A stretch of DNA of 64,000 bases from Elusimicrobium sp. GTDB taxonomy: Bacteria; Elusimicrobiota; Elusimicrobia; Elusimicrobiales; Elusimicrobiaceae. How positions within the stretch are numbered: the stretch's first letter is position 1; every line of letters starts with the position of its first letter. The stretch lies in NCBI GenBank assembly GCA_015062115.1, contig SUVG01000005.1, positions 62,001 through 126,000 on the forward strand. The letters are read 5' to 3'. Shown one piece after another: positions 2,083-58,358 of the stretch. Below the pieces are notes generated by a model, which did not search any database, had not been told where the DNA came from, and saw nothing but the letters and a program-made list of their open reading frames with translations. The translations under genes were made by a program, and so were the position numbers.

Positions 2083-4032
2083 ATGGCTGAAAAAGTAAAT
2101 TCTTCTCGCCGGTTACCGGCGGTGCTTCAGTTGCCGTCTCGGGTATTTACCTACCGGTTTTTCCTGTCTGTTTGTCTGCTTATACTTATTTTGTTTTCCC
2201 TTACTTTCCAACACTCGAAAGTGGGAATCTTTGTATTGGCGTTAATCAATTTTCTTTTTTGTGCCGATGTATTTGCCCAATGTGCTTGGAAAGATTTGAC
2301 CGTCGGGCGGGTAGGCCTTCCCATGTGGGTGACAGTTTCTGTTTTCGGCGGTTTTTTGTATTCTTCTTTTAATACTTTTTTAACCCGTACGCTCTTTGGC
2401 CCTTCCGCGGAACTCTACTTATATGTTTCTCTTTTTATCACCATTTCTCTTTGGGTTTGCCGTCGTTTTGCTCAACAAAAAGAACTTTCCCGTGTTTTTA
2501 TTAAAAAACTGGACGATTTCCTTCCCAAGGCAGGACGCTTATGTGTGGGGCATCAATTCAGGAAAGTCTTTGCGCAGGAATTAAAACAAGGCGAAATTAT
2601 TTTTGTAAAAACCGGAGAACGCCTGCCTTGCGACGGAATCGTTCGCAAGGGGAAAACTTCCATCGATGAACAACTAATTACCGGCAATATGTTGCCTACT
2701 TCCAAAACGGTAGGAAGCCGTGTGTACGCCGGAACACTCAATAAATCGGCCGATGTATATGTAGAAGTAACTGAAACCCTTGAACAATCCGCCTTGATGA
2801 CTGTTATTTCCGCTATTAAAAAAGGGGAAACCCGCCGCGGAAATTTTAAGATTTCGTTGGATAAATGGTGTGCCGTATTTTTAGCAATCACGCTGTTGTG
2901 TGCAGTGGGGGGATATGCCTTTATGCTTTCCCGCCACGGGGCTGACCAATGGTTTTATTATTCGGGCATTTTGCTGGCGGGTTGTGCGTTGGGTTCGCCT
3001 TTGGCTCTTTTGTTTATTTCCATTTTTCCTTCCTTTTTTGCCCGTAGCGGTGCGCGTGGGGCTAAAATAAAAATACAAAATTTACAGGCCCTTGAAGATG
3101 TTGTGCAGGCCGATACTTTCTTTTTTGATAAAACCGGCACTCTTACTTACGGGGAACTGCGCGTATCGGGGGTGTATCCCGTGAAGCCTTCTTTGGAAAA
3201 GCAATTGTTGGAAGCCGTAGCCGCGGCCGAACAATTGGTGGACGGCCCGTTTGCCGATGCTGTTAACGGGTATGCCAAAAAGAAAGGTGTTAAAGTCCGT
3301 CGGGTGCTTTGTTTTGATGTGCTCCCCGGCTTGGGCGTACAGGCCATTTGCGGAGAAGATAAAATTCTGGCGGGTCGTTCCGCCTGGTTGGAAGAGCAAG
3401 GCGTTAAAACTTCCACCAAGGCCGACCACATGGCCGAAGCCGTCATTTGCGTGGCCAAAAACCGTAAATTCTTGGGGTATTTAACTTTGTCTGACGAATT
3501 GCGCCGCGGAGCCAACGAACTGGTTTCTTTCTTACATGAACAGAAAAAAGAGTTGGTTTTGGTATCGGGGGATAACGAATCTTCCGTTGCCTATATGGCC
3601 CAACAGGCAGGCATAGCCAAGGTAAACGCCAATGTTCTTCCCAAAACCAAGGCCGAGATTGTTTCCAACCTGCGCGCTATGGGAAAAAAAGTGGTAATGG
3701 TGGGAGACGGTTTTAACGACATTATTGCTTTGTTGCGTGCCGATGCGGGGGTGGTGTTTTCCTCCGGTAGAAATGTGTATAACAACTGGGTAGATGTTAT
3801 CATCAAACGGCGGGACTTGTATTCCCTGCTAGATTTATTTACAATAAATAAGAAATTGCGCCGTATTACTGCCGGTAATGCCTGTTTTGCTTTTGGGCTT
3901 AACGCCGCGTTGACGGGGTATTTGTTTTGGCGCGGGCCGGGTAATTCCGGCTGGCATTGGGCTGTGGGGGGAAGTTTGGCCATAGTCCTACTGATTTGGT
4001 TAAATTCTGCGAGGTTATTAAAAATAAAATGA
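2083..4032 (+). CDS. Degenerate P1B-type (heavy-metal-like) P-type ATPase
   Basis: A 649-residue membrane protein with the P-type ATPase layout: N-terminal membrane segments, an actuator domain (~150-240), two segments around residues 263-282 and 292-320, the P/N domains (~345-560), and two C-terminal segments ending LNSARLL as in P1B pumps. The phosphorylation loop DKTGT (Asp349), SGDN (~495-498) and GDGFND (541-546) are intact. Other hallmarks are altered. The actuator TGE reads TGN (200-202), the transmembrane CPC reads AGC (299-301), the nucleotide-domain HP reads GP (388-389), and there is no N-terminal heavy-metal domain. It may hydrolyse ATP atypically or be regulatory; substrate unknown. 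It lies 5 bp after the TPR lipoprotein gene and its stop overlaps queF (ATGA). Confidence 0.8.
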   Translation: MAEKVNSSRRLPAVLQLPSRVFTYRFFLSVCLLILILFSLTFQHSKVGIFVLALINFLFCADVFAQCAWKDLTVGRVGLPMWVTVSVFGGFLYSSFNTFLTRTLFGPSAELYLYVSLFITISLWVCRRFAQQKELSRVFIKKLDDFLPKAGRLCVGHQFRKVFAQELKQGEIIFVKTGERLPCDGIVRKGKTSIDEQLITGNMLPTSKTVGSRVYAGTLNKSADVYVEVTETLEQSALMTVISAIKKGETRRGNFKISLDKWCAVFLAITLLCAVGGYAFMLSRHGADQWFYYSGILLAGCALGSPLALLFISIFPSFFARSGARGAKIKIQNLQALEDVVQADTFFFDKTGTLTYGELRVSGVYPVKPSLEKQLLEAVAAAEQLVDGPFADAVNGYAKKKGVKVRRVLCFDVLPGLGVQAICGEDKILAGRSAWLEEQGVKTSTKADHMAEAVICVAKNRKFLGYLTLSDELRRGANELVSFLHEQKKELVLVSGDNESSVAYMAQQAGIAKVNANVLPKTKAEIVSNLRAMGKKVVMVGDGFNDIIALLRADAGVVFSSGRNVYNNWVDVIIKRRDLYSLLDLFTINKKLRRITAGNACFAFGLNAALTGYLFWRGPGNSGWHWAVGGSLAIVLLIWLNSARLLKIK

Positions 4033-57960: not shown

Positions 57961-57986
57961 TTAAAAACCCCGCTGTAAGCGGGGTT
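57961..57986 (-). terminator. Terminator-like hairpin beside the structured repeat
   Basis: AACCCCGC-tgtaa-GCGGGGTT (57966-57973, 57979-57986). On the minus strand it is followed by TTTTTAATTTT; on the plus strand it follows the DUF3137 stop by 7 bp with only a weak T-tract. Its orientation fits a minus-strand transcript passing through the repeat at 57993-58152. Confidence 0.65.
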
Positions 57987-58012
57987 AAATTCAACGGAGA
58001 GGGAGGGATTTG
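57985..58012 (-). repeat. Copy of the tRNA-Ser 3' end (28-bp direct repeat)
   Basis: These 28 bp are identical to 58182-58209, which cover the 3' end of tRNA-Ser(CGA) (half of the T-arm and the acceptor strand) plus downstream bases. The rest of a tRNA is missing at this copy. Two exact copies of a tRNA 3' end in the same orientation, 197 bp apart, are what an integrase attachment duplication leaves. Confidence 0.85.
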
Positions 58013-58152
58013 CCTTCCGGTAAAATTCCTGACGGAATTTTCCTGCAGGCCGGGCTCGCGGTACTCGCCTTTGCCTAACGGCAAAACTCGTACAACGCTC
58101 CGCCTTTCAAATCCCTACGCCACACAAAGCAGTTTGTATGGCTCCAACCGTT
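57993..58152. repeat. Structured multi-hairpin element next to tRNA-Ser
   Basis: A ~160-bp non-coding element. Outer inverted ends AACGG / CCGTT (57993-57997, 58148-58152) and inner 9-bp inverted ends AGGGATTTG / CAAATCCCT (58004-58012, 58108-58116) enclose several hairpins: AAAATTCC-tgac-GGAATTTT (58022-58041), TTGCC-taac-GGCAA (58071-58084), and ACAAA-gcag-TTTGT (58124-58137). There is also a CCTGCAGG palindrome. No reading frame or transposase is present. It could be a small non-autonomous mobile or tRNA-associated repeat, or a structured RNA. Confidence 0.65.
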
Positions 58153-58183
58153 AAAATAAAAAGGCCCCCTCGCGGGAGCCTTT
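58151..58183 (-). terminator. Terminator of the tRNA-Ser gene
   Basis: AAAGGC ... GCCTTT stem (58160-58165, 58178-58183) extended by C/G pairs around CGC; on the minus strand it is followed by TTATTTTAA. It begins 9 bp after the tRNA 3' end. Confidence 0.78.
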
Positions 58184-58191
58184 AAATTCAA

Positions 58192-58276
58192 CGGAGAGGG
58201 AGGGATTTGAACCCTCGAAACCTTGCGGTTTACAGGTTTTCGAGACCTGCTGTTTCAACCACTCACACACCTCTCC
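58192..58276 (-). tRNA. tRNA-Ser (anticodon CGA)
   Basis: An 85-nt class II tRNA on the minus strand. The acceptor stem GGAGAGG / CCTCTCC and discriminator G (58192), the D-arm with AGTGGTTGAAACAGC, and the anticodon stem CAGGT-CTCGAAA-ACCTG give anticodon CGA, reading UCG. A long variable arm (AAACC-gcaa-GGTTT) and T-arm GAGGG-TTCAAAT-CCCTC complete it. CCA is not encoded. A terminator follows. Confidence 0.95.
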
Positions 58277-58358
58277 AAATTGCGCTCGGGCCGAGTGGCG
58301 AACCACTAAACGCCTATACATATTATATCAAACTTTTTTGCTTGCTGTCGCAGGATGG

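What the first reader, a model, noticed from the sequence alone, without database searches (positions are those of the whole stretch)
57961..58276. Structured 160-bp element bounded by a duplicated tRNA-Ser 3' end
A 28-bp exact copy of the tRNA-Ser(CGA) 3' end and trailer (57985-58012) lies 197 bp from the true one (58182-58209). Between them is a non-coding block with nested inverted ends (AACGG/CCGTT and AGGGATTTG/CAAATCCCT) and at least three perfect hairpins. Each tRNA-end copy is followed, on the minus strand, by its own terminator-like hairpin. This looks like an attachment-site duplication around a tiny remnant or a tRNA-associated non-autonomous repeat, and it could also be transcribed as a structured RNA.
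Basis: partly seen in the sequence, partly recalled or inferred. Interest (0 to 1): 0.62.

Follow-up and report, generated by a model that had tools for sequence, protein, structure and literature searches.

The report
Hairpin element copied onto tRNA ends
A roughly 200-base, gene-free, hairpin-rich DNA element sits directly behind this tRNA gene and behind many other tRNA genes in two distant groups of bacteria, and each copy carries segments that match the particular tRNA it sits behind, so it looks like an undescribed mobile element that is refitted to each tRNA it lands on.

Summary
In detail: the 28-bp repeat is exact and starts at nucleotide C56 of the tRNA T-loop. The block is not a single remnant. 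It is one copy of a dispersed family: 10 covariance-model matches in this genome, 3-27 in nine relatives, more in another family of the order (Elusimicrobiota) and in Patescibacteria. Nearly all lie on the tRNA's strand a few tens of bases behind a tRNA gene; tRNAs for at least 18 amino acids are hit. Unit: tRNA 3' end, trailer (often a terminator), acceptor complement, hairpin HP1, T-arm complement, hairpins HP2 and HP3, second tRNA 3' end from C56. The T-arm complement fits its own tRNA better than other isotypes in 109 of 109 copies. In one Patescibacteria genome, copies behind tRNA-Phe, -Pro and -Leu share 104-nt cores that are 99-100% identical, while the tRNA-derived parts are switched to the local tRNA. 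Presence varies at an orthologous locus. This supports a small palindromic mobile element addressed to tRNA T-loops. The mobilising enzyme is unknown: Y1 transposase is absent from own and nine counted genus genomes, reverse transcriptase from all but one. RNA function is untested.

The parts
58191..58277 (-). tRNA-Ser(CGA), the host tRNA gene
   Evidence: ARAGORN; Rfam tRNA 56.9 bits
58182..58209 (-). D1: tRNA 3' part from C56 (58209) through acceptor and trailer; the copy that belongs to the true tRNA
   Evidence: 28-bp exact repeat
58152..58184 (-). terminator-like hairpin + T run behind the tRNA
   Evidence: sequence
58142..58152 (-). acceptor complement (AACGGTTGGAG), left end of the element
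   Evidence: sequence; pairs with D2 in the ssDNA fold; matches own tRNA better than other isotypes in 92/109 copies
58120..58141 (-). HP1: palindrome with conserved centre AACTGCTT
58106..58117 (-). T-arm complement (TAGGGATTTGAA), tRNA-specific
   Evidence: own tRNA favoured in 109/109 copies
58053..58104 (-). HP2, conserved two-part hairpin (GGAGCG..GTAC..GGC..GAGTACCGCGAG)
   Evidence: covariation
58019..58043 (-). HP3, palindrome with GTCA/GTTA loop
   Evidence: covariation
58003..58141 (-). whole covariance-model match R1 (152.2 bits)
   Evidence: the window copy is one of the 35 training sequences
57985..58012 (-). D2: second copy of tRNA 3' end from C56 (58012), right end of the unit
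   Evidence: start position 18-21 nt before the tRNA end in most of 136 copies
57963..57986 (-). second terminator-like hairpin + T run
   Evidence: sequence

Best explanation
The block is one copy of a non-coding, palindrome-rich mobile element (unit about 150-200 bp) whose landing site is the 3' part of tRNA genes. SHOWN: it lies behind tRNA genes on the tRNA strand; its right end abuts C56 of a duplicated tRNA 3' end; HP1-HP2-HP3 form the shared module; the acceptor complement, T-arm complement and terminal tRNA copy are specific to the local tRNA; near-identical cores occur at different tRNAs within one genome; presence varies at an orthologous locus. INFERRED: a copy moves to another tRNA by an exchange at the conserved T-loop (U55/C56) that leaves a duplicated tRNA 3' end, so the real tRNA stays intact; the folded single strand is the form recognised; the arms are then matched to the new tRNA by copying from it (hairpin template switching during replication). 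The mover acts in trans and is unidentified; in the genus it is not a resident Y1 transposase and, in nearly all genomes tested, not a resident reverse transcriptase. A host-wide factor such as a Xer-type recombinase, or replication and repair enzymes, is possible.
For: Copies: own genome 10 model matches, nine relatives 3-27 each, family f2 of the order, Patescibacteria. Position: 8 of 10 own-genome matches follow an intact tRNA, one follows a displaced tRNA-Val 3' half, one is at a contig end (45 tRNAs in all); 105 of 129 database matches have an intact tRNA within 130 nt upstream. Own-tRNA specificity: T-arm complement 109/109, D2 99/109, acceptor complement 92/109. Copying: G065 tRNA-Phe/Pro/Leu share 104-nt cores at 99-100% with switched tRNA parts; Asp and Ser-GGA cores 98% in G011, Cys and Ser-TGA 98% in G015. 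Core tree labels follow neither genome nor tRNA. Present/absent at the tRNA-Ser(CGA) locus. Structure: 691 cells changed on both sides, shuffled mean 219, 0/500. HP1 stems: 5 G-T and 2 A-C of 955 cells despite several pair types per position.
Against: No transposition was seen; the genomes are draft or metagenome assemblies. No enzyme was identified: Y1 is absent from 13 of 14 genus genomes tested, own included, RT from 11 of 12, and tyrosine recombinases are mostly Xer-length or island integrases. G-T scarcity can also arise from template switching, so it does not prove a DNA function. The acceptor complement usually stops at the acceptor stem (N73 complemented in 29 of 82, about 20 expected) and is not clearly closer to the 3' than to the 5' strand (33 against 20, 131 ties), so a tRNA-like RNA fold stays possible. 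Core conservation across two phyla could mean a host function.
Confidence: 0.7

Rival explanations
1. A transcribed tRNA-like RNA: acceptor complement + HP1 (D-arm-like) + opened T-arm carrying the HP2/HP3 domain, ending in a real tRNA 3' end; made with or after the tRNA, processed by RNase P and tRNA 3' enzymes, and serving a host or selfish RNA function.
For: In several f2 copies the left end reads like acceptor 5' strand + two bases + GC hairpin start; N73 usually left unpaired; strongly conserved unpaired bases in the core; in many f2 and Patescibacteria copies the unit follows the tRNA within about 5-50 nt.
Against: In the window and many genus copies a strong terminator precedes the unit; HP1 has almost no G-U; presence at an orthologous locus is not conserved; no Rfam family matches at its gathering score except the tRNA.
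Confidence: 0.2
2. Folded recombination site of a cassette system: the unit is an attC-like site, the tRNA end is the platform, and gene cassettes are captured between units.
For: L054: tRNA-Ser(TGA)-unit-Sel1-repeat ORF-unit-Fic ORF-unit; tandem units in L057, L060, L061, L065.
Against: Only one gene-bearing array was seen; the AACGG/CCGTT ends follow the local tRNA and are not a fixed core site; no dedicated integrase found.
Confidence: 0.12
3. Attachment-site scar left by ordinary tRNA-integrating islands or phages.
For: A direct repeat of a tRNA 3' end starting in the T-loop is a classic att signature (own knowledge); islands sit at tRNA-Val(GAC) next to units (L070; L140).
Against: The same structured core recurs at tRNAs for at least 18 amino acids and in tandem; those islands joined at the anticodon loop and displaced or carried an existing unit; no phage or plasmid match.
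Confidence: 0.04
4. Old host element fixed at each tRNA and inherited vertically, its arms slowly co-evolving with the tRNA.
For: Some orthologous groups cluster (tRNA-Leu(GAG) of G034, G028, G021).
Against: Cores do not follow tRNA identity; arms switched with 0-1 core changes in G065; absent from some orthologous tRNA-Ser(CGA) loci.
Confidence: 0.04

Closest known systems
REP / REPIN sequences and RAYT-type Y1 transposases (PMC3733652, PMC3116915)
   Same: Small, non-coding, dispersed, hairpin-forming units, thought to be moved by an enzyme supplied in trans; CGTC-tagged REPs are also reported to lack a dedicated transposase (PMC3733652).
   Different: Here the site is fixed (tRNA T-loop/3' end), and the unit has three distinct conserved hairpins plus arms that change with the tRNA; no Y1 transposase in the carrier genus genomes counted by model.
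Rickettsia palindromic elements and other MITE-like repeats
   Same: Short palindromic genomic parasites (own knowledge; PMC3733652 equates RPE-4 and RPE-6 with CGTC REPs).
   Different: No tRNA addressing or target-matched arms known to me.
Integron attC sites
   Same: Folded single-strand site, arrays, variable stems with conserved structure (own knowledge).
   Different: No fixed RYYYAAC/GTTRRRY ends and no integrase gene linked.
tRNA-targeting integrative elements using the T-loop
   Same: Junction in the T-loop and a rebuilt tRNA 3' end.
   Different: No genes, about 200 bp, many tRNAs in one genome, shared folded core.
Dictyostelium TRE retrotransposons targeted to tRNA genes (PMC5391098, PMC9012585)
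   Same: Use tRNA surroundings as a landing place in a dense genome.
   Different: Eukaryotic retrotransposons at a distance from the gene; here no RT in most carriers tested in the genus and an exact junction.

Membership tests
REP/REPIN (RAYT-mobilised) | Short palindromic repeat in many copies, non-coding | tested here: met
REP/REPIN (RAYT-mobilised) | GTAG (or CGTC) tag at the hairpin foot | tested here: inconclusive
   Read by eye: bases before HP1 vary (GGAG, GAAG, GTAG, TAAG, CAAG); after HP1 often CGTC or CGTA, but these run into the tRNA-specific T-stem complement
REP/REPIN (RAYT-mobilised) | Y1 (RAYT) transposase gene in the genome | tested here: not met
   PF01797 absent from own genome and from all nine E-carrying genus genomes counted by model
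Integron attC | Fixed RYYYAAC...GTTRRRY core ends | tested here: not met
   Read by eye: unit ends follow the local tRNA and differ between copies
Integron attC | Linked integron integrase | tested here: inconclusive
   Tyrosine recombinases found were Xer-length or island integrases; no IntI-specific model was run
tRNA-targeting integrative element | Direct repeat of tRNA 3' end flanking the insert | tested here: met
tRNA-targeting integrative element | Integrase gene inside the element | tested here: not met
   no ORF of 80 aa or more in the window block
Group II intron / retroelement | Reverse transcriptase in the genome | tested here: not met
   PF00078 absent from own genome and from eight of the nine other E-carrying genus genomes counted by model
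Known RNA family | Rfam match at gathering score | tested here: not met
   only the tRNA itself
Casposon / Cas1-type integration | Cas1 integrase and fixed-length target duplication | not tested
   Cas1 not searched; D1/D2 likeness extends a variable length past the tRNA (median 26 nt)

The most novel reading that the evidence does not exclude
A class of selfish DNA that addresses the universally conserved T-loop of tRNA genes and rewrites its own arms from each new target, so one folded core can occupy nearly any tRNA in a genome and has spread across at least two bacterial phyla, moved by a still unknown (possibly host-encoded) enzyme acting on folded single strands.
Probability: 0.4. Interest if true: 0.88.

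Novelty: new variant of a known kind. Interest (0 to 1): 0.74.

Why it matters
If right, bacterial tRNA genes are the home of a miniature mobile element that can sit behind almost any tRNA without breaking it, because it comes with a second tRNA end and arms fitted to the target. It gives a concrete test case for how non-coding palindromic elements move without a resident transposase, is a likely cause of assembly breaks (units at contig ends) in Elusimicrobiota and Patescibacteria, and could help trace DNA exchange between these lineages.

Tried and rejected
Chance repeat: rejected (28 bp exact, a family). Decayed second tRNA: rejected (shared non-tRNA core across phyla). Island att scar: rejected as the general explanation. 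Phage or plasmid origin: IMG/VR hits to a loose pattern showed no model match, a more specific pattern gave none, and blastn found nothing in phage or plasmid records. Y1 transposase and reverse transcriptase as resident movers in the genus: not supported. Xer dif-likeness of HP1 (CATAA..TTATG) considered and dropped: the arms vary and the centre is constant, the reverse of a recombinase site. tRNA-like left end: tested twice, undecided. The first core tree used cores cut short in some rows; it was repeated with better ends. The model R1 was built from 35 copies found by blastn, so covariation counts lean towards it, though the slid and shuffled controls are far below. Two region fetches failed on a length limit and were repeated.

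Full report
OBSERVATION. The 28-bp exact repeat (57985-58012 and 58182-58209) and the tRNA-Ser(CGA) at 58191-58277 minus are as described. Read on the tRNA strand, the repeat is CAAATCCCTCCCTCTCCGTTGAATTTAA, so it begins at C56 of the T-loop. The block between holds no ORF of 80 aa or more. As single-stranded DNA the tRNA strand folds at z = -4.6, the opposite strand at z = -3.15.

A FAMILY. blastn of the block against its own genome and 60 relatives found matches in 50 of 61 genomes, including all 37 of the genus. A covariance model (R1, 35 copies, 40 pairs) finds 10 matches in this genome and 3-27 in nine relatives. In this genome 8 of 10 follow an intact tRNA gene, one follows a displaced tRNA-Val 3' half beside an integrase island, and one is at a contig start; the genome has 45 tRNA genes, so chance placement is excluded. 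The same layout is found in the other family of the order and, through one scan of GTDB genomes that stopped at 120 rows (80 titles shown), in Elusimicrobiota and in Patescibacteria (Niyogibacteria, Yanofskybacteria, Giovannonibacteria, Moraniibacteriota, Parcubacteria). Of 129 pattern matches there, 105 have an intact tRNA less than 130 nt upstream; several of the rest are second tandem units or lie near contig ends.

ANATOMY. In tRNA orientation: tRNA end (D1), trailer and often a terminator, acceptor complement, HP1 (variable palindrome around AACTGCTT), T-arm complement, HP2, HP3, second tRNA end (D2), often a second terminator. Most D2 copies start 18-19 nt before the tRNA 3' end, or 21 nt, which fits C56 without and with an encoded CCA. 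D1/D2 likeness runs a median 26 nt past the tRNA; 38 of 136 run into a second, often truncated, unit. Covariation is strong: 691 cells changed on both sides (shuffled mean 219, 0/500; slid versions at most 167) on 91 distinct rows. In HP1 of 191 copies, pairs 3-7 hold 5 G-T and 2 A-C cells of 955 although positions vary between several pair types. Template switching between inverted repeats is a published cause of such perfect stems (PMC8794818; PMC7202029 for quasipalindrome mutations in E. coli; abstracts read only).

TARGET MATCHING. In 109 copies chosen by tRNA adjacency, HP1 and the core motif (not by arm match), the T-arm complement scores higher on its own tRNA than on the mean of other isotypes in 109/109, D2 in 99/109, the acceptor complement in 92/109.

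MOBILITY. In Patescibacteria genome G065 the copies behind tRNA-Phe, -Pro and -Leu share 104-nt cores at 99-100% and an identical HP1. What differs is the acceptor complement, the T-stem complement (Phe against the other two) and D2, each fitting its own tRNA. Similar pairs: Asp/Ser-GGA in G011 and Cys/Ser-TGA in G015, 98%. On the core tree neither genome nor tRNA label clusters beyond shuffles. At the conserved hydrolase-tRNA-Ser(CGA)-fmt locus, units are present in G021, G024 and G034, cut short in G028, reduced to a remnant in G030 (fmt side seen), and absent in G005 and, on the fmt side, G006; other genus genomes have a tRNA-Ser(CGA) without a unit (G007, G008, G010, G016), with the hydrolase seen in the fetched stretch.

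MOVER. Y1 transposase (PF01797): none in own genome nor in any of the nine other genus genomes counted with the model, all of which carry units; one match in G033, which was not counted with the model but has blast matches. Reverse transcriptase (PF00078): none in own genome and in eight of those nine; G007 has three. Tyrosine recombinases: 2-6 per genus genome, mainly Xer-length proteins and island integrases, and 0-2 matches in the Patescibacteria genomes. So the mover is unknown; a widely present recombinase or the replication machinery fits but is inference.

RIVALS. A tRNA-like transcribed RNA remains open: some f2 left ends resemble a tRNA 5' end, yet tests of the acceptor complement were undecided. 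A cassette system is suggested by one array with Sel1-repeat and Fic genes between units. Vertical inheritance alone is contradicted by G065.

KNOWN RELATIVES. REP and REPIN elements (PMC3733652, PMC3116915) are the nearest kind in behaviour; membership fails on the transposase, and the tag is inconclusive. The literature searches here covered open PubMed Central papers only and found no description of tRNA-addressed, target-matched palindromic elements; subscription papers and preprints were not searchable.

LIMITS. R1 was trained on copies from these genomes, including the window's.

Noticed in passing
L054 1-2642 (G003:C27): Array tRNA-Ser(TGA)-unit-ORF with Sel1 repeat-unit-Fic ORF-unit, ending at the contig edge: genes lie between units.
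   Followed up: partly
L070 6545-10969 (G000:C3) and L140 2865-16678 (G011:C34): Islands at tRNA-Val(GAC), apparently joined in the anticodon loop, with a tyrosine integrase; one displaced a unit, the other has units at both ends.
   Followed up: partly
L058 6885-7412, L139 4110-4756, L143, L151, L152: Longer version of the unit with an extra arm (GGTTGGCAAGGTGTTCTG...AGARCACCTTGCCAACC) before HP2.
   Followed up: no
L208 about 3475-3900 (G023:C8): tRNA-Ala(CGC) followed by tandem repeats of its own 3' end and terminator without the unit: another tRNA-end repeat.
   Followed up: no
G000:C2 end (L088) and G000:C5 start (L087): Two contigs of the window's genome end inside units: the element breaks assemblies, and the two contigs may join there.
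   Followed up: no
L055/L131 9830-10127, L120 4045-4183, L124 4134-4282: A second subfamily (GAGGCGGGGTCGCGAGCGCCGC...CTTGTGACC in place of the usual HP3 region), close to the form seen in the other family of the order and in Patescibacteria.
   Followed up: partly
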